From: Antedon mediterranea
Taxonomy: Eukaryota > Echinodermata > Crinoidea > Comatulida > Antedonidae
Assembly (NCBI RefSeq): GCF_964355755.1
Contig: NC_092679.1
Span: forward strand, 19,086,932 to 19,150,931
Length of the DNA: 64,000 nucleotides
Reading direction: 5' to 3'
Part shown: piece by piece, positions 1-56,322 of the stretch
Layout of the letters: each line of letters opens with the position of its first letter
Numbering within the stretch: the stretch's first letter is position 1
Translations under genes and position numbers: made by a program
The notes under the pieces: generated by a model
Told to the model about the DNA's origin: nothing
What the model saw: only the letters and a program-made list of their open reading frames with translations
The model's database searches: none

Positions 1-1010
1 AAGTATTTGTATGTGTATTATTTGATTTATTGAGCAGGGAATTAATTGATTTCCAAGTTGCCTTAATATCATTTTTGTGTTTGAGAAACGTTTTGTGAAA
101 ATAATTTTTTTTTGCAGCTTTAATTGTAGTATTTAATTTATTACGGAATTGTTTAAAGGCTGTTTCATTTATTTGGGTGGGACAATGGATAAATTTAGAG
201 TACAGTTTATGTTTGTGTTTAATTGAATTAAGTAGGCCATTAGACATCCATGACTTTAATTTATTATTTTTTTTTCGTTTTTGAGGAGAGGAAAGTGTTT
301 ATCATATATTGATTTTAATATAAGTTCAAAGTGTGAATAAGCCTTATTTGGGTCATCAGTGTTAATAACATCAGTCCAATGTTGGGTGGAAATTTCAAGA
401 CGAAAGTTTGCCAGTGAAGTAAGGTTAAATTTTCTAAAAGTATAGTTTTTATTTGGATTAAGATTATGGAAGGAAGCGTTGAGAAGAGAAATATTGAAGA
501 CAGGAAGATGATCGGAAATGTCGCTATAAAGTAGACCACTTGTGTTTTGGTATTCAGTCTGATTAGTAAAAATGTTGTCTAATAAAGTGGCAGAAGTTTT
601 ACTGATACGGGAAGGTCTATGGATACAAGGAAGGTAATTATTACTGAAAAGCGAGTTGATAAAATCACGAGCATTGTTGTCAGTATCGTATTTAAGGATA
701 TCGATGTTGAAGTCTCCAAGAATGTAGACAATCTTGTTTTCTGTTGATAAAGAGGAAAGCACAGAGTCAAGTTCATTAGTAAATTGTTTAGGGTCAAGTG
801 AAGGCGGTCTATAAATGGTTCCAACAAGAATATTTTTTAGGTTGGGTCTAACAATTTCAATAAAGATGGATTCAGAAGTAGAGGGTTGCAGAGTTAGATC
901 ATTTCTAAGGAAAAATTCAAGGCCATCACGGATATATAAGGCAACCCCACCACCGTCTTTATAATAGTCGTTTTTAAATAAAAAATAAAACAGCAGATAC
1001 AAATTCGCCC
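1..1010 (-). mobile_element. LINE fragment: APE-type endonuclease, broken
   Basis: Minus-strand remains of a non-LTR retrotransposon. Positions 1044-256 translate into an endonuclease-like domain: a GGGVALYIRDGL start, then a YRPPS motif, a GDFNID motif (metal binding) and a SDHLPV motif (catalytic Asp-His). These are signatures of the AP-endonuclease domain of Jockey/CR1-type LINEs. The frame shifts near 280 at an A/T run. Coding then resumes towards position 1 with the usual linker (LYSKF, FRNKLN, a TWKSIN-like stretch) that leads to the reverse transcriptase. The RT itself lies beyond the window edge. The 5' end is truncated because the N-terminal part of the endonuclease is missing before about 1010. 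It is non-functional. The exact clade is not determinable by eye. Confidence 0.85.
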
Positions 1011-1546
1011 CTACAGTGGTTAACAGAAAAACAAGAAGACACAATTACACAATCTCGAAAACACTTACACTACGATGAAAGTTTAGAATAAAAGATACCA
1101 ATATAGGGATGGGCCTGAACTAAATTATTATTAAGATAAATTTAATTTTGCATTCTTTTTACTCATCTCATGCATTTTTGTCTTGGTGAATTTTTATATT
1201 CCTCCCCTCTCCCCTTTTATATTCCATCCCCTCTCTACCCAACACGAACACGAGCTTTACAAAATAATGACAACTGTCAAAAGAACGTTTTTAATCAATT
1301 TTCGTCTTTTTATAGTCATTTTGTTACTTATTTTATATATTTAAATAACTTTTTTTTAAATGTAATATAACGAATGCAAATATGGTTTTAAAAACATCAA
1401 CATCAATCATTTTATGTATAGACTAAAAAAAACTGACAGAGAAGATCATGCAAAATGTACAACATTTAAGATAACATATTTTCATTAAAACTGATTAATA
1501 TTATATAATTATTTTATATCTTTATTATTTGTGTCATTGTTTATAG

Positions 1547-2024: not shown

Positions 2025-3190
2025 ATAATAATAATAATAATAATTTATTAGGAAATGACACCTTTGCATCGGTGGCACACACAGAAGTGGTGCATCCAAT
2101 TTAACATAATACATCAAAACAATACATTATATGACGGATACAGATTCTTAAACTATTTGCAAAAATATAAAAGATAAATCATTACCAACATGGTAATATA
2201 GGTACTGTATTAAATTGTCTTACATTATCATAGGTTTGAGTTGATAAAGAGGTATATAAAAATAAACATAAAATATAGTAAAGAGTTTACAATACAAACC
2301 ATTGTGTTTCAACATCAGGTACTGAGGACCTATAGTTGTTATCACAGGTGTATAATATTTACAAATCAAAAAAGGTCTCAGATTCTTTACAAATCGCGAT
2401 AGAATCTCCACCTAAAATATACTGTAATTTATCATCAGCACTTGCTGTTGTGACACGATTCCATGTGTCATAATCATTACAGAGTACAAGATTATGTTGT
2501 AGATTGGATAATTCTTTCATTCTAATATTATCAAATGCTTTACAGTTTAATAAAAAATGTTTAATGTCTTCAATTTCACCATTCCCACATATAGTACAAA
2601 GACCGGACACATCATTGGACCATTTATAAGTTTTACAATCTAAAGGTAGAGTGTTAGATCTTAATTTAAATTTCAGACTTGTCTCATAAAAATGTGTTTT
2701 ATCAAGTAAATACTTTTCTAAATTAGGGAAAGGTTTCAATTTTGAGTATAAATTTAATGAGGTTTTTTGCATTACATTATTTGACCACTCTGATTTATAT
2801 GATTCTGACAAACATCGCTCGACATTGCTGACTGAGAAAGGAACAAGAGTTAAACTATCATTATCAAAAACATTGTTGTAAAAGCCTATATCTGTACATT
2901 TTTCAAATATGTACAACACAACTACTAAGAAATTTATATTTTAAACAATCAAAGTCACATTTCAATTGTAGCATAGAATTAAGTACAATATTAGGCCACC
3001 TGTGGTCATCCATAGATATAAAACGATTAAATAATTTAACTCTGGACAGTTTGTGTAACTTGGATAATGGAACCCACCGAACCGTTGTTACAATCATTGT
3101 GATATAGATCTTTTTGAGTCGCTGATTAAAGAATAAATATTTTGGCACACATGGCGTGTCATACGTATAAAACGATGGGAACAAGTCTAG
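2025..3190 (-). mobile_element. LINE 3' end: zinc-binding C-terminus, frameshifted
   Basis: Minus-strand remnant of the C-terminal part of a LINE ORF2. The frame from 3184 to 2903 is followed by a second frame from 2919 to 2359, so there is a frameshift near 2910. The second frame contains CTICGNGEIEDIKHFLLNC, the C-x2-C...H-x4-C finger found after the reverse transcriptase of many LINEs (zf-RVT type). Reading on towards 2040, the strand ends in an (ATT)n run at about 2022-2043. Such 3' microsatellite tails are usual for CR1/L2-like elements. The RT itself is absent, so this is a 5'-truncated copy. It lies between the two TMEM179B-like genes. Confidence 0.8.
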
Positions 3191-7606: not shown

Positions 7607-10600
7607 ATGAGCGATCAAATAACAGAGTTCCTAAAGACGAATTATATCCCCATTACATCAGCTGCAGCTGTCGGTATGTTATATTTATAATTTTTTAAAT
7701 TTAGATAGAGAGACTTCGTACACTCATACTTAGTTAGTGTACTCTAACCATCGCTATTTATTTATGTTTCCAATATTCATGACAAAGAAACGGTGTTAAA
7801 GGTTGCAGAAGACCGGCGTGAAGTTGGTTACTTATTCCTTATTCGATATTCAATTTTTTTTGTGAAGTTGGATCCTTATTCGACATTCACATTCACATGT
7901 ATGGGGCGCAATATGTGTAATATTTTAATTAAATGATTTTATACTTACGGCTTAGATTAAGTAGGGCTATGATTTATAGGGCTATAACTTCGTTGTAAAC
8001 GGCATGGACCGGGATGACGATACATGGGTTCGGGCTAGTAGGGTCCAGTCGTTTCAGAAAAATACCACTTGCCCCGGTCCATGCCGTCTAGTTGTCATTT
8101 TAAGCCATTTTAAAACGTTACTACAATTTAACGTTTTTTTAAATAAAAAATTCAATATAACAGGATGATATATAGGGCTATAATTACGTTATAAACGGCA
8201 TGGACCGGAATGACGATACATGGGTTGGGGCGAGTAGGGTCCAGTCATTTCAGAAAAATACCACTTGCCCCGGTCCATGCCGTCTAGCTGTCATTTTACG
8301 CCATTTTAAAACGTTACCGGTCCTACAATTTAATTTTTAAAAATAAAAAATGCAATATAACCGAATGATTTATAGGGCTATAAATACGTTATAAACGGCA
8401 TGGACCGGGATGACGATACATGGGTTGGGACTAGTAGGGTCCAGTAGTTTAAAAAAAATACCACTTGACCCGGTCCATGCCGTCTAGCTGCCATTTCACG
8501 CCATTTTAAAACCTTACTACAATTTCACGTTTTTATAAAAATTGCAAAATAACCGGATGAAATATAGGGCTATAATTACGTTATAAACGGCATGGACCGG
8601 GATGACGATACATGGGTTGGGGCGAGTAGGGTCCAGTTATTTCAGAAAAATACCTCTTACCCCGGTCCATGCCGTCTAGCTGTCATTTTACGCCATTGTA
8701 AAACGTTACTACAATTTAAGGTTTTCATAAAAAATGCAATGTAAACGTATGATTTATAGGGCTATAATTACGTTATAAACGGCATGGACCGGGATGACGA
8801 TACATGGGTTGGGGCAAGTAGGGTCCAGTCAATTCAGAAAAATACCACTTGCCCCGGTCCATGCTGTCTAGCTATCATTTTACGCCATTTTAAAACGTTA
8901 CTACAATTTAACGGTTTTTTTTATAAAAAATGCAATATAACCGAATGATTTATAGGGCTATAATTACGTTATAAACGGCATGGACCGGGATGACGATACA
9001 TGGGTTGGGGCTAGTAGGGTCCAGTAGTTTCAGAAAAATACCACTTGACCCGGTCCATGCCGTATAGCTGCCATTTCACGCCATTTTAAAACCTTACTAC
9101 AATTTAACGTTTTTATAAAAAATGCAATATAACCGGATGATATATAGGGCTGTAATTACGTTATAAACGGCATGTACCGGGATGACGATACATGGGTTGG
9201 GGCAAGAAGGGTCCAGTCAATTCAGAAAAATACCACTTGCCCCGGTCCATGCCGTCTAGCTATCATTTTACGCCATTTTAAAACGTTACTACAATTTAAT
9301 GTTTTTTTTTTATAAAAAATGCAATATAACCGAATAATTTATAGGGATATAATTACGTTATAAACGGCATGGACCGGGATGACGATACATGGGTTGGGGC
9401 TAGTAGGGTCCAGTAGTTTCAGAAAAATACCACTTGACCCGGTCCATGCCGTCTAGCTGTCATTTTACGCCATTTTAAAACGTTACTACAATTTAAGGTT
9501 TTCATAAAAAATGCAATGTAAACATATGATTTATAGGGCTGTAATTACGTTATAAACGGCATGGACCGGGATGACGATACATGGGTTGGGGCAAGTAGGG
9601 TCCAGTCAATTCAGAAAAATACCACTTGCCCCGGTCCATGCCGTCTAGCTATCATTTTACGCCATTTTAAAACGTTACTACAATTTAACGTTTTTTTTTA
9701 TAAAAATGGAATATAACCGAATGATTAGGGCTATAATTACGTTATAAACGGCATGGACCGGGATGACGATACATGGGTTGGGGCTAGTAGGGTCCAGTCA
9801 ATTCAGAAAAATACCACTTGCCCCGGTCCATGCCGTCTAGCAGTCATTTTACGCCATTTTAAAACGTTACTACAATTTAAGGTTTTCATAAAAAATGCAA
9901 TGTAAACATATGATTTATAGGGCTATAATTACGTTATAAACGGCATGTACCGGGATGACGATACATGGGTTGGGGCAAGTAGGGTCCAGTCAATTCAGAA
10001 AAATACCACTTGCCCCGGTCCATGCCGTCTAGCTGCCATTTTACGCCATTTTAAAACGTTACTACAATTTAATTTTTTTATAAAAAATGCAATTTAACCG
10101 AATGGTTTATAGGGCTATAATTACGTTATAAACGGCATGGACCGGGATAACGATACATGGGTTGGGGCTAGTAGGATCCAGTCGTGTCAGAAAAATACCA
10201 CTTGACCCGGTCCATGCCGTCTAGCGGCCATTTCACGCCATTTTAAAACGTTACTACAATTTAACTTTTTTATAAAAAATGCAATATAACCGAATGATTT
10301 ATAGGGCTATAATTACGTTATAAACGGCATGGACCGGGATAACGATACATGGGTTGGGGCTAGTAAGGTCCAGTCGTTTCAGAAAAATACCACTTGACCC
10401 GGTCCATGCCGTCTAGCGGCCATTTCACGCCATTTTAAAACGTTACTACAATTTAACTTTTTTTATAAAAAATGCAATATAACCGGATGATATATAGGGC
10501 TATAATTACCTTATAAACGGCATGGACCGGGATGACGATACATGGGTTGGTGCGAGTAGGGTCCAGTTATTATAGAAAAGTACCACTTGCCCCGGTCCAT

Positions 10601-13600
10601 GCCGTCTAGCTGTCATTTTACGCCATTTTAAAACGTTACTACAATTTAACGTTTTTAACAATAAAAAATGCACTATAAACGTATGATTTATAGGGCTATA
10701 ATTACGTTATAAACGGCATGGACCGGGATGATGATGCATGGGTTGGGACGAGTAGGGTCTAGTCATTTCGGAAAAATACCACTTGCCCCGGTCCATGCCG
10801 TCTAGCTGTCATTTTACTCCATTTTAAAACGTTACTACAATTTAAGGTTTTCATAAAAAATGCAATGTAAACATATGATTTATAGGGCTATAATTACGTT
10901 ATAAACGGCATGGACCGGGATGACGATACATGGGTTGGGGCAAGTAGGGTCCAGTCAATTCAGAAAAATATTACTTTACCCGGTCCATGCCGTCTAGCTA
11001 TCATTTTACGCCATTTTAAAACGTTACTACAATTTAACGGTTTTTTTTTATAAAAAATGCAATATAACCGAATGATTTATAGGGCTATAATTACGTTATA
11101 AACGGCATGGACCGGGATGAGGATACATGGGTTGGGGCTAGTAGGGTCCAGTCGTTTCAGAAAAATACCACTTGACCCGGTCCATGCCGTCTAGCTGTCA
11201 TTTTACTTCATTTTAAAACGTTACTACAATTTAACGTTTTTAAAATAAAAAATGCAATATAAACGCATGATATAATAGGGCTATAATTACGTTATAAACG
11301 GCATGGACCGGGATGACGATACATGGGTTGGGGCGAGTAGGTTCCAGTCATTTCAGAAAAATACGACTTGCCCCGGTTCATGCCGTCTAGCTGTCATTTT
11401 ACGACATTTTGAAACGTTACTACAATTAAAGTTTTTTTAAATAAAAAATGCAATATAACCGAATGACTTATAGGGCTATAATTACGTTATAAACGGCATG
11501 GACCGGGATGACGATACATGGGTTGGGGCAAGTAGGGTCCAGTCAATTCAGAAAAATATTACTTTACCCGGTCCATGCCGTCTAGCTATCATTTTACGCC
11601 ATTTTAAAACGTTACTACAATTTAACGGTTTTTTTTATAAAAAATGCAATATAACCGAATGATTTATAGGGCTATAATTACGTTATAAACGGCATGGACC
11701 GGGATGAGGATACATGGGTTGGGGCTAGTAGGGTCCAGTCGTTTTAGAAAAATACCACTTGACCCGGTCCATGCCGTCTAGCTGTCATTTTACTCCATTT
11801 TAAAACGTTACTACAATTTAACGTTTTTAAAATAAAAAATGCAATATAAACGCATGATATAATAGGGCTATAATTACGTTATAAACGGCATGGACCGGGA
11901 TGACGATACATGGGTTGGGGCGAGTAGGTTCCAGTCATTTCAGAAAAATACGACTTGCCCCGGTTCATGCCGTCTAGCTGTCATTTTACGACATTTTGAA
12001 ATGTTACTACAATTAAAGTTTTTTTAAATAAAAAATGCAATATAACCGAATGACTTATAGGGCTATAATTACGTTATAAACGGCATGGACCGGGATGACG
12101 ATACATGGGTTGGGGCTAGTAGGGTCCAGTAGTTTCAGAAAAATACCACTTGACCCGGTCCATGCCGTCTAGCTGCCATTTCACGCCATTTTAAAACCTT
12201 ACTACAATTTAACGTTTTTATAAAAAATGCAATATAACCTGATGAAATATAGGGCTATAATTACGTTATAAACGGCATGGACCGGGATGACGGTACATGG
12301 GTTGGGGCGAGTAGGGTCCAGTCATTTAAGAAAAATACCTCTTACCCCGGTCCATGCCGTCTAGCTGTCATTTTACGCCATTTTAAAACGTTACTACAAT
12401 TTAAGGTTTTCATAAAAAATGCAATGTAAACATATGATTTATAGGGCTATAATTACGTTATAAACGGCATGGACCGGGATGACGATACATGGGTTGGGGC
12501 AAGTAGGGTCCAGTCAATTCAGAAAAATACCACTTGACCCGGTCCATGCCGTCTAGCTGCCATTTTACGCCATTTTAAAACGTTACTACAATTTAATTTT
12601 TTTATAAAAAATGCAATTTAACCGAATGATTTATAGGGCTATAATTACGTTATAAACGGCATGGACCGGGATAACGATACATGGGTTGGAGCTAGTAGGA
12701 TCCAGTCGTGTCAGAAAAATACCACTTGACCCGGTCCATGCCGTCTAGCGGCCATTTCACGCCATTTTAAAACGTTACTACAATTTAACTTTTTTATAAA
12801 AAATGCAATATAACCGAATGATTTATAGGGCTATAATTACGTTATAAACGGCATGGACCGGGATAACGATACATGGGTTGGGGCTAGTAAGGTCCAGTCG
12901 TTTCAGAAAAATACCACTTGACCCAGTCCATGCCGTCTAGCGGCCATTTCACGCCATTTTAAAACGTTACTACAATTTAACTTTTTTTATAAAAAATGCA
13001 ATATAACCGGATGATATATAGGGCTATAATTACCTTATAAACGGCATGGACCGGGATGACGATACATGGGTTGGTGCGAGTAGGGTCCAGTTATTATAGA
13101 AAAGTACCACTTGCCCCGGTCCATGCCGTCTAGCTGTCATTTTACGCCATTTTAAAACGTTACTACAATTTAACGTTTTTAACAATAAAAAATGCACTAT
13201 AAACGTATGATTTATAGGGCTATAATTACGTTATAAACGGCATGGACCGGGATGATGATGCATGGGTTGGGACGAGTAGGGTCTAGTCATTTCGGAAAAA
13301 TACCACTTGCCCCGGTCCATGCCGTCTAGCTGTCATTTTACTCCATTTTAAAACGTTACTACAATTTAAGGTTTTCATAAAAAATGCAATGTAAACATAT
13401 GATTTATAGGGCTATAATTACGTTATAAACGGCATGGACCGGGATGACGATACATGGGTTGGGGCAAGTAGGGTCCAGTCAATTCAGAAAAATATTACTT
13501 TACCCGGTCCATGCCGTCTAGCTATCATTTTACGCCATTTTAAAACGTTACTACAATTTAACGGTTTTTTTTTATAAAAAATGCAATATAACCGAATGAT

Positions 13601-16600
13601 TTATAGGGCTATAATTACGTTATAAACGGCATGGACCGGGATGAGGATACATGGGTTGGGGCTAGTAGGGTCCAGTCGTTTCAGAAAAATACCACTTGAC
13701 CCGGTCCATGCCGTCTAGCTGTCATTTTACTTCATTTTAAAACGTTACTACAATTTAACGTTTTTAAAATAAAAAATGCAATATAAACGCATGATATAAT
13801 AGGGCTATAATTACGTTATAAACGGCATGGACCGGGATGACGATACATGGGTTGGGGCGAGTAGGTTCCAGTCATTTCAGAAAAATACGACTTGCCCCGG
13901 TTCATGCCGTCTAGCTGTCATTTTACGACATTTTGAAACGTTACTACAATTAAAGTTTTTTTAAATAAAAAATGCAATATAACCGAATGACTTATAGGGC
14001 TATAATTACGTTATAAACGGCATGGACCGGGATGACGATACATGGGTTGGGGCAAGTAGGGTCCAGTCAATTCAGAAAAATATTACTTTACCCGGTCCAT
14101 GCCGTCTAGCTATCATTTTACGCCATTTTAAAACGTTACTACAATTTAACGGTTTTTTTTATAAAAAATGCAATATAACCGAATGATTTATAGGGCTATA
14201 ATTACGTTATAAACGGCATGGACCGGGATGAGGATACATGGGTTGGGGCTAGTAGGGTCCAGTCGTTTTAGAAAAATACCACTTGACCCGGTCCATGCCG
14301 TCTAGCTGTCATTTTACTCCATTTTAAAACGTTACTACAATTTAACGTTTTTAAAATAAAAAATGCAATATAAACGCATGATATAATAGGGCTATAATTA
14401 CGTTATAAACGGCATGGACCGGGATGACGATACATGGGTTGGGGCGAGTAGGTTCCAGTCATTTCAGAAAAATACGACTTGCCCCGGTTCATGCCGTCTA
14501 GCTGTCATTTTACGACATTTTGAAATGTTACTACAATTAAAGTTTTTTTAAATAAAAAATGCAATATAACCGAATGACTTATAGGGCTATAATTACGTTA
14601 TAAACGGCATGGACCGGGATGACGATACATGGGTTGGGGCTAGTAGGGTCCAGTAGTTTCAGAAAAATACCACTTGACCCGGTCCATGCCGTCTAGCTGC
14701 CATTTCACGCCATTTTAAAACCTTACTACAATTTAACGTTTTTATAAAAAATGCAATATAACCTGATGAAATATAGGGCTATAATTACGTTATAAACGGC
14801 ATGGACCGGGATGACGGTACATGGGTTGGGGCGAGTAGGGTCCAGTCATTTAAGAAAAATACCTCTTACCCCGGTCCATGCCGTCTAGCTGTCATTTTAC
14901 GCCATTTTAAAACGTTACTACAATTTAAGGTTTTCATAAAAAATGCAATGTAAACATATGATTTATAGGGCTATAATTACGTTATAAACGGCATGGACCG
15001 GGATGACGATACATGGGTTGGGGCAAGTAGGGTCCAGTCAATTCAGAAAAATACCACTTGACCCGGTCCATGCCGTCTAGCTGCCATTTTACGCCATTTT
15101 AAAACGTTACTACAATTTAATTTTTTTATAAAAAATGCAATTTAACCGAATGATTTATAGGGCTATAATTACGTTATAAACGGCATGGACCGGGATAACG
15201 ATACATGGGTTGGAGCTAGTAGGATCCAGTCGTGTCAGAAAAATACCACTTGACCCGGTCCATGCCGTCTAGCGGCCATTTCACGCCATTTTAAAACGTT
15301 ACTACAATTTAACTTTTTTATAAAAAATGCAATATAACCGAATGATTTATAGGGCTATAATTACGTTATAAACGGCATGGACCGGGATAACGATACATGG
15401 GTTGGGGCTAGTAAGGTCCAGTCGTTTCAGAAAAATACCACTTGACCCAGTCCATGCCGTCTAGCGGCCATTTCACGCCATTTTAAAACGTTACTACAAT
15501 TTAACTTTTTTTATAAAAAATGCAATATAACCGGATGATATATAGGGCTATAATTACCTTATAAACGGCATGGACCGGGATGACGATACATGGGTTGGTG
15601 CGAGTAGGGTCCAGTTATTATAGAAAAGTACCACTTGCCCCGGTCCATGCCGTCTAGCTGTCATTTTACGCCATTTTAAAACGTTACTACAATTTAACGT
15701 TTTTAACAATAAAAAATGCACTATAAACGTATGATTTATAGGGCTATAATTACGTTATAAACGGCATGGACCGGGATGATGATGCATGGGTTGGGACGAG
15801 TAGGGTCTAGTCATTTCGGAAAAATACCACTTGCCCCGGTCCATGCCGTCTAGCTGTCATTTTACTCCATTTTAAAACGTTACTACAATTTAAGGTTTTC
15901 ATAAAAAATGCAATGTAAACATATGATTTATAGGGCTATAATTACGTTATAAACGGCATGGACCGGGATGACGATACATGGGTTGGGGCAAGTAGGGTCC
16001 AGTCAATTCAGAAAAATATTACTTTACCCGGTCCATGCCGTCTAGCTATCATTTTACGCCATTTTAAAACGTTACTACAATTTAACGGTTTTTTTTATAA
16101 AAAATGCAATATAACCGAATGATTTATAGGGCTATAATTACGTTATAAACGGCATGGACCGGGATGAGGATACATGGGTTGGGGCTAGTAGGGTCCAGTC
16201 GTTTCAGAAAAATACCACTTGACCCGGTCCATGCCGTCTAGCTGTCATTTTACTCCATTTTAAAACGTTACTACAATTTAACGTTTTTAAAATAAAAAAT
16301 GCAATATAAACGCATGATATAATAGGGCTATAATTACGTTATAAACGGCATGGACCGGGATGACGATACATGGGTTGGGGCGAGTAGGTTCCAGTCATTT
16401 CAGAAAAATACGACTTGCCCCGGTTCATGCCGTCTAGCTGTCATTTTACGACATTTTGAAACGTTACTGCAATTAAAGTTTTTTTAAATAAAAAATGCAA
16501 TATAACCGAATGACTTATAGGGCTATAATTACGTTATAAACGGCATGGACCGGGATGACGATACATGGGTTGGGGCGAGTAGGGTTCAGTCGTTTCAGAA

Positions 16601-19600
16601 AAATACCACTTGACCCGGTCCATGCCGTCTAGCTGCCATTTTACGCCATTTTAAAACGTTACTACAATTTAATTTTTTTATAAAAAATGCAATATAACCG
16701 GATGGTATATAGGGCTATAATTACGTTATAAACGGCATGGACCGGGATGACGATACATGGGATGAGGCGAGTAGGGTCCAGTCATTACAGAAACATACCA
16801 CTTGTCCCGGTCCATACCGTCTAGCTGCCATTTTACGCCATTTTAAAACGTCATTATTATTATTGTAGTAACGTTTTAAAATGGCGTAAAATGACAGCTA
16901 GACGGCATGGACCGAGGCAAGTCATATTTTTCTGAAATGACTACTGGACCATCCGAGCCCCAACCCATGTATCGTCATCCCGGTCCATGCCGTTTATAAC
17001 GTAATTATAGCCCTATAAATCATACGTTTATATTGCATTTTTTAGTTTAAAAATCGTTAAATTGTAGTAACGTTTTAAAATGGCGTAAAATGACAGCTAG
17101 ACGGCATGGACCGGGTCAAGTGGTATTTTTCCGAAATGACTAGACCCTACTCGTCCCAACCCATGCATCGTCATCCCGGTCCATGCCGTTTATAACGTAA
17201 TTATAGCCCTATAAATCATACGTTTATAGTGCATTTTTTATTTTTAAAAACGTTAAATTGTAGTAACGTTTTAAAATGGCGTAAAATGACAGGTAGACGG
17301 CATGGACCGGGGCAAGTGGTACTTTTCTATAATGACTGGACCCTACTCGCACCAACCCATGTATCGTCATCCCGGTACATGCCGTTTATAACATAATTAT
17401 AGCCCTATATATCATCCGGTTATATTGCATTTTTTATAAAAAGGTTAAATTGTAGTAACGTTTTAAAATGGCGTGAAATGGCCGCTAGACGGCATGGACC
17501 GGGTCAAGTGGTATTTTTCTGAAACGACTGGACCCTACTAGCCCCAACCCATGTATCGTTATCCCGGTCCATGCCGTTTATAACGTAATTATAGCCCTAT
17601 AAATCATTCGGTTATATTGCATTTTTTATTTAAAAAAACTTCAATTGTAGTAACGTTTTAAAATGTCGTAAAATGACAGCTAGACGGCATGGACCGGGGC
17701 AAGTCGTACTTTTCTGAAATGACTGGACCATACTAGCCCCAACCCATGTATCGTCATCCCGGTCCATGCCGTTTATAACGTAATTATAGCCCTATTATAT
17801 CATGCGTTTATATTGCACTTTTTATTTTAAAAACGTTAAATTGTAGTAACGTTTTTAAAATGGCGTAAAATGACAGCTAGACGGCATGGACCGGGGCAAG
17901 TGGTATTTTTCTAAAACGAATGGACCATACTAGCCCCAACCCATGTATCGTCATCCCGGTCCATGCCGTTTATAACGTAATTATAGCCCTATAAATCATT
18001 CGGTTATATTGCATTTTTTATAAAAAAAAATGTTAAATTGTAGTAACGTTTTAAAATGGCGTAAAATGGCAGCTAGACGGCATGGACCGGGTCAAGTGGT
18101 ATTTTTCTGACACCACTGGACCCTACTAGCCCCAACCCATGTATCGTCATCCCGGTCCATGCCGTTTATAACGTAATTATAGCCCTATAAATCATTCGGT
18201 TATATTGCATTTTTTATTTAAAAAAACTTAAATTGTAGTAACGTTTTAAAATGTCGTAAAATGACAGCTAGACGGCATGGACCGGGGCAAGTCGTATTTT
18301 TCTGAAATGACTGGACCCTACTCGCCCCAACCCATTTATCGTCATCCTGGTCCATGCCGTTTATAACGTAATTATAGCCCTATTATAACATGCGTTTATA
18401 TTGCATTTTTTATTTTAAAAACGTTAAATTGTAGTAACGTTTTAAAATGGAGTAAAATGACAGCTAGACGGCATGGACCGGGGCAAGTGGTATTTTTCCA
18501 AAATGACTAGACCCTACTCGTCCCAACCCATGTATCGTCATCCCGGTCCATGCCGTTTATAACGTAATTATAGCCCTATAAATCATACGTTTATAGTGCA
18601 TTTTTTATAAAAAAAAACGTTAAATTGTAGTAACGTTTTAAAATGGCGTAACATGATAGCTAGACGGCATGGACCGGGGCAAGTGGTATTTTTCTGAATT
18701 GACTGGACCCTACTTGCTCCAACCCATGTATCGTCATCCCGGTCCATGCCGTTTATAACGTAATTATAGCCCTATAAATCATACGTTTACATTGCATTTT
18801 TTATGAAAACCTTAAATTGTAGTAACATTTTAAAATGGCGTAAAATGACAGCTAGACGGCATGGACCGGGGTAAGAGGTATTTTTCTGAAATAACTGGAC
18901 CCTAATCGCCCCAACCCATGTATCGTCATCCCGGTCCATGGCGTTTATAACGTAATTATAGCCCTATATTTCATCCGGTTATATTGCAATTTTTATAAAA
19001 ACGTGAAATTGTAGTAAGGTTTTAAAATGGCGTCAAATGGCAGCTAGACGGCATGGACCGGGTCAAGTGGTATTTTTTTAAAACTACGGGACCCTACTAG
19101 CCCCAACCCATGTATCGTCATCCCGGTCCATGCCGTTTATAACGTAATTATAGCCCTATAAATCATTCGGTTATATTGCATTTTTTATTTAAAAAAACGT
19201 TAAATTGTAGTAACGTTTTAAAATGGCGTAAAATGACAGCTAGACGGCATGGACCGAGGCAAGTGGTATTTTTCTGAAACGACAGGACCCTACTAGCCCC
19301 AACCCATGTATCGTCATCCCGGTCCATGCCGTTTATAACGTAATTATAGCCCTATAAATCATACGGTTATATTGCATTTTTTATAAAAAAAACTTAAATT
19401 GTGGTAACGTTTTAAAATGGCGTAAAATGGCAGCTAGACGGCATGGACCGGGGCAAGTGGTATTTTTCTGAATTGACTGGACCCTACTTGCCCCAATCCA
19501 TGTATCGTCATCCCGATCCATGCCGTTTATCACATAATTATAGCCCTATAAATCATCCGGTTATATTGCATTTTTTATTTTAAAAAACGTTAAATTGTAG

Positions 19601-22600
19601 TAAGGTTTTAAAATGGCGTAAAATGACAGCTAGACGGCATGGACCGGGGCAAGTGGTTTTTTTCTGAAACCACTGGACCCTACTAGCCCGAACCCATGTA
19701 TCGTCATCCCGGTCCATGCCGTTTATAACGAAGTTATAGCCCTATAAATCATAGCCCTAATTAATCTAAGCCGTAAGTATAAAATTATTTAATTAAAATA
19801 TTACACATATTGCGCCCCATACATGTGAATGTGAATGTCGAATAAGGATCCAACTTCACAAAAAAAATTGAATATCGAATAAGGAATAAGTAACCAACTT
19901 CACGCCGGTTTGCAGAAGGCCTATATGATATGACTAAAATTGATTGTAATTTAATACTCGTCTTCCATACAATCCCTTGCTAAACTAAACGTTAACCAAA
20001 GGCCGATCGTGTTATAGGCCTACTTCCTAATCATGTGGCCGTATTCACCATTCACATCGGGGCTAAGAGAAACACCCTTAAAATTGAATCTATCTCAGTG
20101 AATACAATTTAAGGGAAATATTAAAATATTTATTGAGTTAAAGTTAAATTATACTTAATATTGGTGTGATTGATGAATACGGCCACTGGACCGTCCGATT
20201 AACATTAGAAACACATGCAATTCCTACATAATTTTTTAGGAATCGGTTTGCTGATGCTTAGGAGGTACTCATCTGGTGGGAAATGTTACAGTGATGCAAC
20301 ATTAAATAGTAAGGTGGTGATAGTGACAGGAGCGAATACAGGCATAGGCAAGGAGACGGCTTTAGATCTAGCCAGACGAGGTAAGACGCGTAATATGATA
20401 GTGAACTTAGGCCTAAAGCAAAAAATAGTAAAATTGGCTGCCAGCCGAGTTGAATAACCGTTTAGACCTATTTTGTTATGAATATGAAAACATTTTTTTT
20501 TTTGTCTGCAGAAGTGATTAACTCTATTAAAATACAAAATTACCTATCAATAACGTTTTTGAATGAATACATTTTCAACGGCAAAAATAAATACACTACA
20601 TTGTCCGGGTGATTTCATGCGGACGACACAGCAAATATACGAATTTCAAAGCATCAATTATAATATTCCCAGGTCATTTTAAGTGAACAAAAACGAACCA
20701 ACGGCATAGGCCTATGTACCACCGGTATCGAATTATCATACTTACGGGGCGCCGGTCAGGACACCAGTAAAACATTTAGAAAAGAAGCAAGTAGTGTAAA
20801 ATAATTACTGTTCATTGTACGGTATCTGTCGCACGCTTTTAAGCCTTTCAATGTTCTTGTTTTCTTTAGTCCGGTAATAGATCGTTATCCTGTACTGTCA
20901 ATCCAATGATTTAATGTCTTTATATTATTTCTAGGAGCAAAAGTAATTCTAGCTTGTCGCAATTTGGAAAAGGGTGAAGATGCAGCGGAGGAGATAAGAA
21001 GGAAAACTGGTAGTCGCAATGTCGTGGTGAAGACGTTGGACCTAGCTTCACTAGCATCTATACGGGCATTTGCTGATTCGATAATTAAGAGTGAACCACA
21101 CCTGGATATTCTTATTAACAACGCAGGTTTGTACTGGTCAGCATACTTCACCCTACATTTAAACGGACCATCAAAGGTGGCATAAAATATTTATACAGGA
21201 TTACACAATCAAGTAAAAGAAAACCTGTTTAGCATTTGGTGTCTCGAATACAAAAAAAATCAGAAAATACTAACCTACATGCTTTGCATTTGCGACGACG
21301 GGCGACCTAAAAAAGTTATGTTAATTCATTATGCGCATGCGGCGGGTAAATGCTCCCCCACCTCGACATATTTTTGGTTGTTGACACATTGACAATGACA
21401 TAGCCTAAATTTGTTCTTCGTCGCAAAATCTGAAATCCTCTACGCCACAAATTGAATAAGTTTAGATAATAAAATGTTCATGGAAACGTAATTTCGAGGG
21501 ATCTTTAAACTGTATATTTATTGCGAAACAGCTCTACCCTATCGACACTCAACATGGTTATTACTATTTAGTATTATGCACACATTTTATTTTCAGGGTT
21601 ATTTTATTTCTATTCTGATAGTCGCCGAGAAACATCAGATGGCTTCGAACAAGTTTTTGGTACAAATCACCTTGGACCATTCTTGCTAACAAACCTTTTA
21701 CTGGACTTGCTGAAGAAGTCGGCACCAAGCCGAATTGTCAATGTTTCCTCTTCGGGTCACGCTGAGGCTAACATTAACTTTGATGACATTAACTCTACGG
21801 AATCTTTTGAACCTGTAGCTGCTTATTGCCGAAGTAAACTAGCAAATATTCTCTTTACAAAGGAACTTGCAGAAAGATTAAAAGGTAATTCACATGTTAT
21901 TATTAGTCTGATCTTAAGTTCGATTCATCTAGGATGCATTTCATTTTGTCCAAAGGGTTAATTTTACGCTTGGTTGAATGTCGTATGCGCATACACGCAG
22001 CCGGTTCTCTCGGTCTGTATATCTAAATTTGTTCAGTTTCATAAACGCAAAAAATATTTCATGAAACGCGGAAGATGTCATGAAACAGTTCATAACCAGC
22101 AGACCAATACATACATAAAAAGTGCTCATCAAACTTAAATCGTTTTAACTTATTCATTTACAGGAACAGGCGTAACTTGCTACTCGCTTCATCCAGGCTT
22201 CGTAGCAACAGACGTCTTCCGTAGCATGCCACTGTTGCTTAAGCCATTGCTCAATGTGATTCTGCTTCTAATCTCCAAGAATTGTAAAGACGGTGCGCAG
22301 ACCACAATACACTGTGCTGTTGAAGAGAGTCTAGCAAATGAGTCTGGATATTACTACTGGTAGGTTGGTTGTTCACATAACCCGTGACGTTATAGAAACG
22401 TATCCATTGTGATCTTGCAAAATTAGTAAATCTATCCAAATAAATAAACTTCAAATCTATGTCCATGTTACGTACTATATTCACTACTATTCAAAGGAGG
22501 TTGTGTGTGCTACTTCACCGTACAACGTTAAGAGTGAAGATAGTTTCTGTCCATTCGGTCGTGAGGAACATGCCATGATCAAGGCGCGAGTAAGGCTCAC

Positions 22601-23042
22601 TTAGACAGACGAGGGCCAATCGTCGGGAGAAAATAAACATCCCGCGACGACAACGCCCGACGGTATCGCAAGACGACTCGTCACGTCGGGTATTAACTCA
22701 AACAACACCGACGAGTCAAGACGTTTCGTCGGGCCTCGTCGTACGATGCTGTCTCAGGTGGCCTATGGCATCTGCTTATACAAGCGGAATAATAATTTGA
22801 GTCTCCTTGGTGTTGTGCTGACTTCTTTGACTCTCGCATGTTTTTACGATAGGCCTATACTTCACTTTACATTTAAATACGTTTTTATTAAAATATTAAG
22901 GTAATTTCATATTGTGAATTTCGTTTTGTTTAGTGATTGTAAACAGAAGAAACCATCCAAGGCAGCGCAGGATATGGTTGCCGCCAAGAAACTATGGAAA
23001 GTCAGTGCTGAGATGGTTAAATTAGATATTAAACAAGATTAA
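7607..23042 (+). CDS. RDH13-type short-chain dehydrogenase (copy A)
   Basis: Classical SDR of the retinol dehydrogenase 11-14 type, which reduces or oxidises retinoids or other carbonyls with NADP(H) at a membrane. Six exons: 7607-7673, 20240-20380, 20935-21126, 21597-21884, 22164-22359 and 22934-23042 (TAA), giving 330 aa. Human RDH13 is 331 aa. An N-terminal hydrophobic anchor lies near residues 13-32. The cofactor motif TGANTGIG is at 52-59, NNAG at 131-134, a catalytic Ser in NVSSS near 184-186, and Tyr210 and Lys214 in YCRSK. All phases agree with copy B at 24165. Exon 1 is recognised by likeness to copy B exon 1 (FLKTNYIP versus LLKTNYVP). The odd feature is intron 1. It is 12,566 bp because a foldback transposon fills it, against 358 bp in copy B. 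The exact substrate is not known. Confidence 0.88.
7803..7811 (+). repeat. Left target-site duplication of the foldback element
   Basis: TTGCAGAAG directly precedes the element end ACCGGCGTGAAG. The same nine bases follow the other end at 19910-19918. Confidence 0.9.
7812..7975 (+). repeat. Left outer inverted terminal module
   Basis: Non-satellite terminal sequence whose reverse complement is at about 19746-19909. It contains two related blocks starting GTGAAGTTGG (7819 and about 7862), each followed by a CTTATTCGAYATTCA-like stretch. These look like repeated subterminal sites of the kind a transposase might bind. Confidence 0.85.
7976..16851 (+). repeat. Satellite array, forward arm, about 45 monomers of 192-200 bp
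   Basis: Each monomer begins around TTATAGGGCTATAATTACG, passes ATAAACGGCATGGACCGGG, then a central CATGGGTTGGGGC, then CCCGGTCCATGCCGTCTAG and an A/T-rich tail with a ACGTTACTACAATTTAACGT dyad. The spacing between successive monomers measured at 8191-9360 is 192-200 bp. Each monomer thus has its own internal inverted repeat. The array has no coding capacity. Confidence 0.95.
9840..16575 (+). repeat. Higher-order repeat of exactly 2,524 bp (13 monomers), 2.7 copies
   Basis: Marker variants recur at a fixed distance: AATTTAACCGAATG at 10091, 12615 and 15139; GTATGATTTATAGGG with the GATGATGATGCATGG variant at 10681, 13205 and 15729. Similarity starts near 9840 and stops near 16575. The copies are nearly identical, unlike neighbouring monomers. 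A smaller 587-bp (three-monomer) step is nested inside, for example AAACGCATGATATAATAGGG at 11261 and 11848. Confidence 0.9.
16852..16870. other. Centre of the foldback element
   Basis: The forward arm ends CCATTTTAAAACGT. After a CATTATTATTATT spacer and TGTAGTA the sequence continues as the reverse complement, ACGTTTTAAAATGG. This is where monomer orientation flips. The arms are unequal: about 9.0 kb on the left and about 3.05 kb on the right. Confidence 0.9.
16862..19745 (-). repeat. Satellite array, reverse arm, about 15 monomers
   Basis: Same monomer as the left arm but reverse-complemented (ACGGCATGGACCGG... CCCGGTCCATGCCGTTTATAACG). The 2,524-bp higher-order pattern is not seen here. 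The outermost monomer carries GCCCGAACCC (near 19687) in place of GCCCCAACCC. This mirrors the GGGTTCGGGC variant found only in the first monomer of the left arm (near 8029). Confidence 0.93.
19746..19909 (-). repeat. Right outer inverted terminal module
   Basis: Reverse complement of 7812-7975 with about three substitutions over about 165 bp. It ends ACTTCACGCCGGT. Confidence 0.88.
19910..19918 (+). repeat. Right target-site duplication of the foldback element
   Basis: TTGCAGAAG, identical to 7803-7811, followed by GCCTATATG. Removing the element plus one copy leaves an intron of about 459 bp, close to the paralog's 358 bp. Confidence 0.9.
22595..22755. repeat. Dispersed CGTCGGGAG-rich element in RDH copy A intron 5
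   Basis: A GC-richer island of repeated GTCGGG/ACGACGA motifs. GTCGGGAGAAAATAAACATC followed by CCGCGACGAC matches, in reverse orientation, a stretch at about 42690-42765. It is a non-coding mobile-element remnant. Confidence 0.5.
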
Positions 23043-23064: not shown

Positions 23065-23542
23065 CAGTACAACATATAGATATTACTGTTGTTGAATATT
23101 TGGTATAGAAGGCAAGCAAGAAAGGGTATACGAGAACATAATAACATGTGTACGGAACATGTCTTTTCAATCAACTGCGTGGTTTGAATGCCTTTACGGC
23201 ACAATATTTGTAGAATGATGCTTTATAGTATAATACTTTAATAGAGTACTGTTTTGCTCCCCATACCATTTAAAATGAGTATAATATAATTTGTAAATTT
23301 ATTCAGTACAACATATAGATATTACCGTTGTTGAATATTTGGTATAGAAGGCAAGCAAGAAAGGGTATACGAGAACATAATAACATGTGTACGGAACATG
23401 TCTTTTCAATCAACTGCGTGGTTTGAATGCCTTTACGGCACAATATTTGTAGAATGATGCTTTATAGTATAATACTTTAATAGAGTACTGTTTTGCTCCC
23501 CATACCATTTAAAATGAGTATAATATAATTTGTAAATTTATT
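23065..23542 (+). repeat. 239-bp tandem duplication in the 3' UTR of RDH copy A
   Basis: Two near-identical 239-bp units, each starting CAGTACAACATATAGATATT and separated by exactly 239 bp. I saw one T/C difference early in the unit. The first unit starts 22 bases after the stop codon. From 23543 to 24164 I see no gene. Confidence 0.92.
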
Positions 23543-24164
23543 CAGTACACTGTTTTAACTTGTGTACATAAATAATACATAATGTATAGTTAGGGTAGCC
23601 CCATTTTTATATGAATATTAACTTTTAAAATTACTTTTAAAGAAAGTATTATATATTTGCAATAACTTAAATTATGGTATATCCACCCGTGAATAGTGGT
23701 CTCAACAAAACTTCACTGATGATGGTAATTTAGTGCATTTTCTATTTAGCCTATTCATAATTATATTATAGTTTAGGATAGGTCTCTAATAAAATAATAT
23801 CACACATTATACAATATATAGATTGTACGTAAAACTGAATGAACTGAAATAAAATGAAATAACGTATTGCGAAATGGAAAGTCTCGCACTTTCAAGAGCA
23901 GTATGCCTCACAGAAGACACACTCTATTATTTCAATAAAATATATTCTACTGAATTTGACCTAACGTTGCTTTGAACTTTGTTCTAAAAGAACGCAAACA
24001 TGACTATAAGTAAAGTAAACAGATAAGATATTGGTATAAGTGATGCGACTTGCAACCGAAAGCGGCAGTGTTGAAGTCCGATTCTACTAGAGCTGACGTA
24101 GGCCTAGATATTGATTACCTATTTGGGGACATTTTTTTTTATCACAACTGTAGATTTTTAAAAT

Positions 24165-28027: not shown

Positions 28028-31000
28028 ATGGACTGGGTAACATCATTGAAAGATTACAATGCTTCTAAAGGTAAACTCCTGTGAGTTTTATTTAAAATAA
28101 GATTATATTTATGTAATGAATAATTCTTAGGCCCAAATGCGTAGAATCTGGTTGTTGTATTACGAGGCCTTACCTCTTAGGATTTGGCCCTAAAAGACTC
28201 TTTATTAATGAAGTGAAGGAAGTGATCAGTGGGCCTAGCCCTAGCTAAGCCTACAGTTTGTGATTGTGATTCTGTTTTGTCAATTTTTGTTACGAATAGA
28301 AATAGGATGGGCGCCGTCGTAGGATGGCCAGCCTTACTCCCCGTTTGATTACATTTACAAAACTCGCCTTTTCAGCACAAAAAACCGAGAATGAAATGAA
28401 GTTGGATGAAGAAAAATGTGACAAAAAGTTTGAAGAATTGTATCTAAAGTTTAAAGGGCAACCGAACGAGGAGAAAAGTACAAGCTATGCCAAAATTCCA
28501 AGATTTTACTACAAGGTATAGTATATAATCTAGCATTATTTCATAGAATTAATTTCTACTTCTGTGGGTGGTGGAGAGGTAAGCAATAACGTCAACCAAC
28601 CTAAAAGTTTTGTTTGAAATATTTCATGGTTTTACAAAACTTTCAAAACAATGCATCTAATTTTGTGAAAATTCTAACTTTCTTACAGCTACCAAGTGAA
28701 GACGAAACATTGTTGCAGAAACTGAGAGAAGAATCTCGGTAAGTTGTGCAATTGTGCCTGACCTGCAGTATCCCCATGCGATCTTGTATAAAGAATACTG
28801 TATCATTTTGAAACTTTATAATAGTTACTGTTTTTTGTCTTTATTGATTACAATGTTAAATAGTACTAAACGAAGCAGTTTTGATACCATTAAGATGTAC
28901 AGTACACACACCAGACAACAGTCATGAACAAAAACAAATCGAAATAAAATATGTATAATAGAATAATAAACATGGGTCGCCCACAACCGGAGCACCTCTG
29001 GAGGGACACTTTGCTACAGGGAAAAGGGGGGACATTCCCCTTTACTTTAATAATGACGTCTTAACTACGTCTGTATCATATTGTATTAAAGTATCAACAT
29101 TTCTATAAAATATTTTCAGAGCTGTATTCCTTCAAAGACGGAGCAGAGAATTACTGGATAATGAGGAGTTGCAGGTTAGTTTTGCAACTGCATATAATTG
29201 GTAGAAATATTGTGATATATAAAAATTACTTTTTAATAATATTTTCTTCCGTAATAAGTTTGATTTATTTATGCTGTCTACAATTATACTACTAACTGCA
29301 TTTGAAATAAATTTATGTTGTATGTATTTCTATACACCAACTTTCTCTAGTGAGTGAGTGGCTAAGTGGTTAAGACAGTGGAACCGTAGTTATGTAGCCA
29401 TAACGTCGGCAATGGTTCAAGGCTCACATGCTCCATGGTTCTGGTGGTAGAATAAGTCTTCTCTGATAAGGACTATAAACTGTAGCGCACTTGAAAGAAC
29501 CTAGTACATCTTTTGATACAAGTAGGGGACTACCCCGGTGTACTAGTACATCACAGCCACTGATCATAACTGGACCCTCTGGAAGACCAGTATAAATGAA
29601 TAATAACTAACTCTCTTTTACTTTTGGCAGAACCTGTGGTTTCTATTGGACAAACATCACACGCCCCCAATGGTTGGAGAGGATCAGATGATAAATTATG
29701 AAGATTTCTTGAAAGTTTCTCAGGAGGCAGGTCCAAAATGCAAGTAAGAAAAAACAAATAATTGACCATAAATAATGTAATTAATATTGTTATGTAGATG
29801 GACTATGTATTGTGTGTATAGTATAGTGCTGTAGGTTTGGTAGGTTTACTTATGCATCATAATACCCAAATGAAGTCATGCATAGAAAATGATTCCAAAT
29901 TTAAAGCTCTGTCTACACTATCAAACCAGTTTGACAAAAAAAAGTGTGATGTACCCAAATATGCTAGTGATATGCCCAAATATGCTAGTGATATGCCCAA
30001 ATATGCTAGTGATATGACATCATCATGTCCATATATGGGCACATGTTTTGTCATATAATGTTTGATAGTGTGGACAGAGCTTAAGGAAGCCCATCAATGA
30101 TCTCTGGAAACTCTCCCAAGCCATATTTGTTTTAGTTTTCAAACATCCCAAATTCTTGTTTTACCATTAAACATATCTACAGTATATACTCAAATTTCCC
30201 AGAAAACCAGACATTAGGCCAGTGTCTGGTATTAAGCTCTGTCTATACTATCAAAACTTTATGCAATAAAAAAATGTAATGTGTCCATATGATGATGTCA
30301 TATCACTACCATATTTGGGTACATCACACTGTTTTGTCAAAGATGGTGTAGACAGAGCTTTAGGAGAGGTGACTACTAGAATTTTAAAGTAATAAAACAA
30401 CCTTATTTCTGCATTGTAGACCTTTCTTCACTGCTACTGTCTTTGCTAAGCTACTTCAAAATGATCCATATGGCAGGATATCCATAATGCAGTTCTTCAA
30501 CTATGTGATGCGTAAGGTGTGGTTACACCAGACACGCATCGGACTCAGTCTTTACGATGTCTCTGGTCAAGGGTACCTTAAGGAATCTGTAAGTCTATTT
30601 TGACCTTGTAGACAATTACAAATGTTATAAATTGATTGGCTTGGCTTTGATGACATTAAAGTATAGTTATACATTAATTGGTTTTTGCTAAAACATTTAA
30701 AACTTTCTACATTTATGGACATGCCATTTGTCAACAATACTAATAACTGAGAATAACATGCGTGTTTGGAATAACATTAGGTTGAGCTCTTTTATTCAAT
30801 TCAAATTTATTCACCTCCCTTAGGAGAAAAATATAAAGAACGGTACAGTAAAATAAGACACATCTGAATAAAGATTCAAATGAATTATAAAATATATATT
30901 AAATTATTCATTCACCTAATTTGCAACTACTCAATTTTTTAGGATCTGGAGAACTATATCCTAGAGTTGATCCCCACACTTCCCCAACTGGACTGCTTAG

Positions 31001-54439: not shown

Positions 54440-56322
54440 TCATCCATATACCTGGTAATTATTCAAGCAGCTTGTTTCTTGTTGACAAAGTGATGGAAGA
54501 ACGAAATACTTGGATACGTCATCCAGTTGTTTCATATTGTAATACCCTCCGGTTTCCACTATATCCACTAAATACATAAATAAGTTCAGCATTAAATTAA
54601 GTTTTCAGGTTTTTATACATGTTGCTCAAGTACGGGGCGCCATTCAGTGCATCATACTGAGACAACTACTACGTCATAGGCCTATATTATAAGTATAGTA
54701 ACCTAAAGCTCTGTCTACACTTTAAAACTGTATGTGACCAAAAAATGTCATGTGCCCATATATGTACATGGTAATGTCATATCACTACCATATTTGGGTA
54801 TATCACTACCATATTTGGGCACATCACACTTTTTTTCAAAAGTTTGATAGTGTAGACAGTGCTTATAAATTAACGATATTTAGGTATACAGCATATGAGT
54901 AGACCTATACGCACATGTAGTTGCAGGTAATTGAATGTGTTTGCCTTTGAAACTAAAAAGAAACGGTATACATTCGTCTTCGCTGACCGTCACTGAGGCT
55001 TGTCCATCATTTTGCGAAGTTTTCATATCAAAGCACCAAGTATTGCTTTTTAAATTGTGCGGATAAACCGCCTGATTACAGAGCTTGCTGTTATCTGTGG
55101 AGAATTAAGTGGATACAATTTTAACAAGCCTAGGCGATGTGTAACAAACGTGGCTCCTCATATTCGGCAACAGTAATCGATTTTTATTATAACCTTGTTT
55201 TGCTTGAACCGGCTTCATTATGCCCTCTAAAGCTCTGTCCGTCTATACTATATACTATCAAACGTTAGCGAAAAAAATGTGATATGCCCGGATTTAGAAA
55301 CGATGACGTCATATCACTACCATATTTGGCCACATCACACTTTTTTCGTCAAAATATATTGATATTTTGACAGAGCTCAAGACGACTCTCACCTGGAACG
55401 CACTTATTCGGCATTTTCGATCCAGCTTGAATTGACGATTTTGTACACGTTTGGGCCTCATAATCGATGGTCCATACATCATTCTGATATCAAATATTAA
55501 ATAAAGAGACAGGTTAACTGAGAACTTATTTGAACTATGTCATATCGCCGGATCACGGTGAAATACGCATACTTTAAAGGCATATCTACACGAGACCTAT
55601 CAAACTTAATGTCACAACAAAATGTGAACATGATGATGACCATATCACAACCATATTTTTGCACATCACACTTTTTTTGTCAAACTAGTTTGATAGTGTA
55701 GACAAGCCTTATAACCCTACATTTTTGTAGTCCTCAATCACCAAAGTATGGGTCCTACTGTCATCTATGTAACCAGTTGTGTTGTAAAACATTCGAGATT
55801 GCTTAAAATCGGCTACAATCGTCACAACTTGTGATAGAGTTCCAAAGTTTTGGTAGTCCTGCTCTATGTGGTACCCAATTAAAGTGCCTTAAAACGAATT
55901 TGTAAGAAACAAAAAATTTAATAATAAATGTTAAAACTGCCTCATTATAATTTATTAAAACACGAAATGGTGTGGACATGCACATCCTGATGATGGGCTA
56001 TGCTGCCCTAAACATGTCGTGTTAATCAATTTTAAGACAGTTTTAATATAGGCCTACCTGTATTTGATTGTTACTATCTACCCTGTCTAGGCTTATGCAG
56101 CTTCTTGATTTAGGCTATATACCGGTATTTAATCGTTATTTACGGTCCTATACTTAATGATCATTGTTTGTATCATGTAGGCCTGGTAGCGGCTACTCTG
56201 TACTTACCCATGTCAACCATAAACATATCGTTCTTCATGCAACATTTTGAGGGTTGTGGCTGTTGAGTGTTACAAATGACCAAAAAGTAAAGAAAGAGCC
56301 CAAAAATACTTATGAGATGCAT
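54440..56322 (-). CDS. Ependymin-related secreted protein 4
   Basis: Exons 56322-56208, 55887-55721, 55483-55393, 55094-54915 and 54567-54440 (stop TGA at 54442-54440), 226 aa. A donor-like GTATAT after the Gln codon could instead lead to an unseen exon. Signal peptide MHLISIFGLFLYFLVICNTQ, then PSKCCMKNDMF. Motifs are VADFKQSRMFYNTTGYIDD, DVWTIDYEAQTCTK, NKCVP, NTWCFDMKTSQNDGQ, EDECIPF and GGYYNMKQLDDVSKYFVLPS-LC. It has extra Cys residues in exon 4 (KLCNQ, TWCFD) and after the last family Cys (TSCLNN) that the others lack. Exon phases are as in copies 1-3. An upstream in-frame ATG was rejected in favour of the signal-peptide start. Introns 2-4 hold three MITE copies. Head to head with EIF3K. 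Confidence 0.82.
54713..54866. mobile_element. CTGTCTACACTATC MITE copy 7
   Basis: AAAGCTCTGTCTACACTTTA to TAGTGTAGACAGTGCTTA. Here the duplicated unit is on the right arm (two ATCACTACCATATTTGGG units). In intron 4 of ependymin-like gene 4. Confidence 0.87.
55228..55380. mobile_element. CTGTCTACACTATC MITE copy 8
   Basis: AAAGCTCTGTCCGTCTATAC to TTTTGACAGAGCTC, in intron 3 of ependymin-like gene 4, ending just before the donor of exon 3. Confidence 0.8.
55577..55712. mobile_element. CTGTCTACACTATC MITE copy 9
   Basis: ATCTACACGAGACCTATCAA to GATAGTGTAGACAAGCCTT, in intron 2 of ependymin-like gene 4, only about 10 bp from the exon 2 donor. Confidence 0.8.

What the first reader, a model, noticed from the sequence alone, without database searches (positions are those of the whole stretch)
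7803..19918. 12.1-kb foldback transposon with perfect 9-bp target duplication inside an RDH intron
Seen: TTGCAGAAG flanks both ends; inverted ends begin ACCGGCGTGAAG; the unique arms of about 165 bp are nearly identical; everything between is inverted satellite. RDH copy A exon 1 (7607-7673) lies before it and exon 2 (20240) after it. Excision would restore a 459-bp intron, like the paralog's 358 bp. Known: Drosophila FB and sea urchin TU elements share this form. Inference: a very large, recently inserted non-autonomous element whose host gene still looks intact.
Basis: partly seen in the sequence, partly recalled or inferred. Interest (0 to 1): 0.92.

Follow-up and report, generated by a model that had tools for sequence, protein, structure and literature searches.

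The report
Giant foldback transposon made of satellite
A 12-kb jumping DNA element, built almost wholly from two back-to-back runs of a short repeat, has landed in an intron of an intact gene, and the same genome holds at least ten more full-size copies plus two related families, so very large hairpin-forming repeat arrays are being moved around this animal's chromosomes as transposons.

Summary
Window 7812-19909 (12,098 bp) has mirror-image ends ACCGGCGTGAAGTTGG, 164-bp terminal domains differing at 2 sites, and a perfect 9-bp duplication TTGCAGAAG. Between them lie a forward array (about 46 units of ~194 bp) and an inverted array (about 15 units), with a 10-bp centre and no coding region. 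It sits in intron 1 of an intact 323-aa retinol-dehydrogenase-type gene. Two related families with the same GTGAAGTTGGTTAC end motif, their own inverted arrays and 9-bp duplications were also found (F2: eight copies of 7.8-20.4 kb plus a 1.4-kb one; F3: 0.7-8.7 kb). Best reading: non-autonomous foldback DNA transposons, probably MULE-mobilised (not proven; no transposase-bearing partner found). Closest known relative in form is Tetris of Drosophila virilis; this clan is much larger and nearly pure satellite. New point: copies share only 0.6-1.7-kb terminal tracts (98-99%) that mostly stop abruptly, and the window copy's centre is unique in the genome, so the array interior is rebuilt between copies.

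The parts
7803..7811 (.). left 9-bp target-site duplication TTGCAGAAG
   Evidence: identical to 19910-19918
7812..19909 (.). whole foldback element E1 of family F1, 12,098 bp
   Evidence: terminus ACCGGCGTGAAGTTGG at both ends in inverted orientation; 10 further full copies in the genome
7812..7975 (+). left terminal domain, 164 bp, non-satellite
   Evidence: the two arms of one copy differ by 0-13 columns, mostly 0-4
7969..16851 (+). left satellite array, about 46 units of ~194 bp, with a 2.52-kb higher-order repeat (96.4% identical over 6.4 kb)
   Evidence: TRF
16852..16861 (.). centre of symmetry, unique to this copy in the genome
16862..19753 (-). right satellite array, about 15 units, inverted relative to the left array
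   Evidence: TRF; 91.5% complementary to 7812-10841
19746..19909 (-). right terminal domain, 164 bp, inverted
   Evidence: 2 differences from the left domain
19910..19918 (.). right 9-bp target-site duplication TTGCAGAAG
7607..7673 (+). host gene (RDH-like short-chain dehydrogenase, copy A) exon 1
   Evidence: GT donor, reading frame continues into exon 2
20240..23042 (+). host gene exons 2-6 (20240-20380, 20935-21130, 21622-21884, 22164-22359, 22934-23042); joined protein 323 aa, Pfam adh_short E=3e-38

Best explanation
The feature is a non-autonomous foldback DNA transposon (family F1 of a three-family clan). SHOWN: it has conserved mirror-image termini, a short terminal domain, and two inverted arrays of a private ~194-bp satellite; copies sit at unrelated sites, each with its own 9-bp duplication, so the whole 12-24-kb unit inserts as one piece. 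INFERRED: a transposase made elsewhere binds the terminal domain (which holds the motif GTGAAGTTGG...CTTATTC twice), cuts the element out and inserts it with a 9-bp stagger; the size points to a Mutator-like (MULE) transposase. INFERRED: the arrays are passengers that change length and centre by unequal exchange or template-switching repair, since related copies agree closely only over their outer 0.6-1.7 kb. In the window the element lies inside intron 1, where splicing can still remove it, so the host gene's reading frame is unharmed.
For: Boundaries and duplication; 11 full copies of 11,993-24,407 bp, 10 with exact 9-bp duplications, all different; termini 32 exact against 0 control; the inverted-array layout is also visible in E7, E8 and E9 from the positions of satellite words; related families F2 and F3 with the same end motif, inverted arrays and 9-bp duplications; the F1 and F2 satellites share a ~50-bp homologous block (alignment score 46 against 19 +/- 2.7 for 300 shuffles), so the array travels with the transposon lineage; shared terminal tracts with abrupt ends and a genome-unique centre; MULE transposase domains are present in the genome and 9-bp duplications are typical of MULEs and of the MULE foldback Tm1 (PMC3169594).
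Against: No copy carrying a transposase was found: none of the 36 MULE matches lies between facing clan termini (positions; the list was cut at 100 of 137 places), and none of the 21 MULE loci in hand contains clan sequence. The superfamily is therefore inferred from duplication size alone. No read-level or population evidence of movement was available.
Confidence: 0.88

Rival explanations
1. Assembly artefact: a simple direct satellite array was wrongly folded, or a palindrome was created in library preparation.
For: Long inverted satellites are hard to assemble; no reads could be inspected.
Against: Eleven F1 copies and seven large F2 copies, each with its own length, its own flanks and matching 9-bp duplications outside the termini; artefacts do not produce duplications of unique flanking DNA. 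Small copies with the same layout exist (1.1-1.4 kb).
Confidence: 0.04
2. Foldback transposons mobilised by a transposase of another superfamily (for example P/Galileo-type or Merlin-type), not by a MULE.
For: Foldback form has arisen in several superfamilies; Galileo is a P-superfamily member (PMC3688188, PMC3573991 abstracts); no partner element was found.
Against: 9-bp duplications in all three families fit MULEs best; P and hAT elements usually give 7-8 bp (general knowledge).
Confidence: 0.25
3. Arm exchange: new copies arise by joining arms from two different elements (recombination or template switching), rather than by copying one element whose array later turns over on one side.
For: The arm tree groups arms of different elements with high support and in inconsistent combinations: E1 left with E9 right, E1 right with E6 right; E2 left in the first group, E2 right with E7 right; unique centre.
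Against: E4 and E5 share both arms (98.8% over at least 1.66 kb on one side, 99.5% over 0.6 kb on the other), which is ordinary whole-element descent with inward turnover. A turnover breakpoint very near one end would look like exchange.
Confidence: 0.3

Closest known systems
Tetris (Drosophila virilis foldback transposon; Dias et al. 2014, PMC4079207)
   Same: Non-autonomous; terminal flanking domain followed by tandem ~220-bp units inside each inverted arm; 8-10-bp duplications; array size varies between copies; no autonomous partner found.
   Different: Tetris arms reach 1.7 kb with a few units, plus an inner domain and a middle domain, and only three structurally complete copies were found; its units also form longer satellite arrays. 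Here the arms hold up to about 46 units in the window copy, there is no inner or middle domain there, 11 complete copies reach 24 kb, and no free array outside elements was seen among the first 100 listed satellite words. Sequence relation cannot be tested here and is not claimed.
Tm1 (Mutator/Foldback family of Meloidogyne; PMC3169594)
   Same: Composite inverted repeats of variable length, mostly 9-bp duplications, several non-autonomous classes.
   Different: About 1-2.5 kb, with a known MULE/FLYWCH-encoding member; none found here.
Galileo (Drosophila, P superfamily; PMC3688188, PMC3573991)
   Same: Very long, internally repetitive inverted ends thought to hold extra transposase sites.
   Different: Encodes a THAP-domain transposase; here no coding member was found and duplications are 9 bp.
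Drosophila FB and sea-urchin TU elements (general knowledge)
   Same: Foldback form with internally repeated arms.
   Different: Short repeat units in the arms and smaller elements; no sequence comparison was possible.

Membership tests
Class II (cut-and-paste type) DNA transposon | conserved terminal inverted repeats at independent insertion sites | tested here: met
Class II (cut-and-paste type) DNA transposon | target-site duplication of constant length with varying sequence | tested here: met
   9 bp, 10 of 11 exact in F1; 7 of 8 in F2; 9-10 bp in most F3 copies, read
Foldback transposon (structural class) | very long inverted ends made of tandem repeats, little or no middle | tested here: met
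   other copies
MULE (Mutator-like) superfamily | 9-bp (8-10) duplications | tested here: met
MULE (Mutator-like) superfamily | mobilised by a MULE-domain transposase that shares the termini | tested here: inconclusive
   MULE domains occur in the genome but no element joining one to these termini was found
Tetris family | nucleotide homology of terminal domain and TIR-220 unit | not testable with these tools
   D. virilis sequence not held; only the layout was compared, from the paper
Autonomous element | transposase reading frame inside | tested here: not met
   interior is satellite throughout

The most novel reading that the evidence does not exclude
Movement itself rebuilds the element: each new copy keeps only its outer 0.6-1.7 kb and receives a new array length, a new arm combination and a new palindrome centre, for example through hairpin-templated or template-switching repair, making these elements machines that generate and spread giant satellite palindromes.
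Probability: 0.25. Interest if true: 0.75.

Novelty: new variant of a known kind. Interest (0 to 1): 0.58.

Why it matters
Long inverted repeats are normally unstable, yet here 12-24-kb, almost pure inverted satellite arrays move as discrete transposons with clean duplications, in related families within one genome. It gives a direct set of insertions for testing how satellites arise from and spread by transposons, how genomes tolerate giant palindromes in introns, and how arrays turn over between copies.

Tried and rejected
Autonomous partner: the solitary or partial F1 ends (L024, L027-L038) were read for coding capacity; only retroelement fragments and truncated copies were seen. F3 copies of 3.5-8.7 kb hold no transposase frame; two hold the same LINE reverse-transcriptase fragment. 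The most recently active MULE (651-aa frame, five copies 99-100% identical over 4 kb) has no clan terminus nearby among the listed places, so it is not the partner by that test. Pattern search for other continuations of the end motif (GTGAAGTTGGTTACNS) gave 2 hits against 1 control, i.e. nothing. RNA families: none in the element. A 6-kb DNA query against the genome returned only one weak place because of repeat filters and was not used. F1-F3 satellite homology: not above shuffles. A conserved 'protein-binding box' inside the unit was considered: the block shared with F2 is not more conserved among window units than the rest. Organism: 11 chromosome-sized contigs and frequent TAGGCCTA suggest an echinoderm, perhaps a crinoid, but paper searches gave nothing; not claimed.

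Full report
WHAT IS THERE. The window is C10:19086932-19150931 of a 354-Mb genome with 11 chromosome-sized contigs. At 7812-19909 lies a 12,098-bp unit whose two ends are mirror images (ACCGGCGTGAAGTTGGTTAC...), flanked on both sides by TTGCAGAAG. Each end has a 164-bp domain that is not satellite; the two copies differ at two bases. Inside, a forward array of about 46 units (7969-16851) meets an inverted array of about 15 units (16862-19753) at a 10-bp centre. Units are ~194 bp (window consensus) and on average 92% alike, equally so within and between the two arrays. The left array carries a 2.52-kb higher-order repeat, 96.4% identical over 6.4 kb, so block-wise amplification was fairly recent. 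Each unit itself contains a short inverted repeat (ACGGCATGGACCGGG ... CCCGGTCCATGCCGT).

HOST GENE. The unit lies in intron 1 of a short-chain dehydrogenase of retinol-dehydrogenase type. The six exons join into an intact 323-aa protein with [12 protein letters not shown] and YCRSK motifs and Pfam adh_short at E=3e-38. Without element and duplication the intron would be 459 bp; the paralogue downstream has 358 bp. Whether the 12.6-kb intron is spliced properly was not testable.

GENOME-WIDE TEST. The exact 16-bp terminus occurs 32 times, the reversed control pattern never. Eleven facing pairs delimit full copies of 11,993-24,407 bp on C1, C4, C5, C7, C8, C10 and C11; ten have an exact 9-bp duplication and one has 7 of 9 matching. 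The two terminal domains of one copy differ by 0-6 columns, 13 in E9. Satellite words show the same back-to-back layout in other copies, with the switch of orientation at a different place in each (E7, E8, E9). The first 100 listed places of an exact 33-bp satellite word all lie in F1 copies or F1 fragments (531 places in all, the rest not listed), so the satellite seems private to the element.

RELATED FAMILIES. F2 (AGCGCCGTGAAGTTGG...) has eight large copies of 7.8-20.4 kb and one of 1.4 kb; eight of the nine were tested for duplications and seven are exact at 9 bp. The large one read in full (L025) has two inverted satellite arrays. F3 (ATGTCTGTGAAGTTGGTTACTAGTTCC...) has copies of 0.7-8.7 kb with inverted ~148-bp arrays and 9-10-bp duplications in most. 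All three share GTGAAGTTGGTTAC. F1 and F2 units share a ~50-bp block far above shuffled controls, so the satellite was probably already part of their common ancestor; F3 units show no such similarity.

HOW COPIES DIFFER INSIDE. Comparing the outer 1.66-3.6 kb of arms, pairs of elements share terminal tracts that end abruptly: E1 left and E9 right 98-99% to 1.2 kb, then 90-97%, mostly 90-94%; E1 right and E6 right about 97.5% to 1.2 kb, then 90-94%; E2 right and E7 right 99.5% to 1.2 kb, then 90-94%; E4 left and E5 right 99.5% to 0.6 kb, then 90-94%; E3 right, E4 right and E5 left 98.6-98.8% throughout the 1.66 kb available. The level after the break equals that of random unit pairs. The centre of the window copy occurs nowhere else in the genome, even with two mismatches. 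So the ends are conserved, the interior is not, and array length differs widely between close relatives (E5 12.0 kb, E4 18.0 kb, E3 20.4 kb).

MECHANISM. Shown: the whole unit inserts at new places with a 9-bp stagger. Inferred: a transposase acting in trans on the terminal domain, most likely of the MULE superfamily because of the 9-bp size, as for Tm1. MULE domains exist in the genome, but no element joining a transposase to these ends was found, and the most recently active MULE does not have them in the places listed. The array is probably remodelled by unequal exchange or by repair synthesis on hairpin templates; this step is inference.

COMPARISON. The nearest described element is Tetris, a non-autonomous foldback with ~220-bp units, 8-10-bp duplications and no known autonomous partner. 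The layout is the same; size, lack of inner and middle domains, number of intact copies and satellite share differ strongly. Homology cannot be tested here. It is therefore filed as a new variant of a known kind, in an unidentified animal, with high confidence in 'foldback DNA transposon' and moderate confidence in 'MULE'.

Noticed in passing
window 29946-30016, 47085-47131, 54778-54827, 59671-59798: The same 21-bp minisatellite unit (TGCCCAAATATGGTAGTGATA) recurs at four separate places, on both strands.
   Followed up: no
window 23065-23549: A 239-bp segment is duplicated in tandem at 99% identity just after the stop codon of RDH copy A.
   Followed up: no
L086 (C2:1380500-1384500) and four other loci: A MULE with a 651-aa open frame has five copies 99-100% identical over 4 kb, with a 212-bp segment repeated upstream in each: a very recently active large MULE or recent duplications.
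   Followed up: partly
L080 and L082: Two F3 foldback copies hold the same LINE reverse-transcriptase fragment between their inverted arrays: a captured or nested fragment that may have been moved along.
   Followed up: no
L033 and L034 (C4:6375000-6380000 and 6346000-6351000): Two one-ended F1 pieces of about 300 bp in a 98-99% identical pair of loci 29 kb apart.
   Followed up: no
L063-L065 (C3:20.76, 20.90 and 22.93 Mb): Three similar loci carry a 34-bp near-copy of the clan terminus (GTGAAGTTGGTTACTTATTCCTTATTCGACATTC) next to other repeats; a fourth family or a remnant.
   Followed up: partly
window 2-1044 and 2362-2940, minus strand: Open frames resembling LINE retrotransposon endonuclease and reverse-transcriptase regions (by eye).
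   Followed up: no
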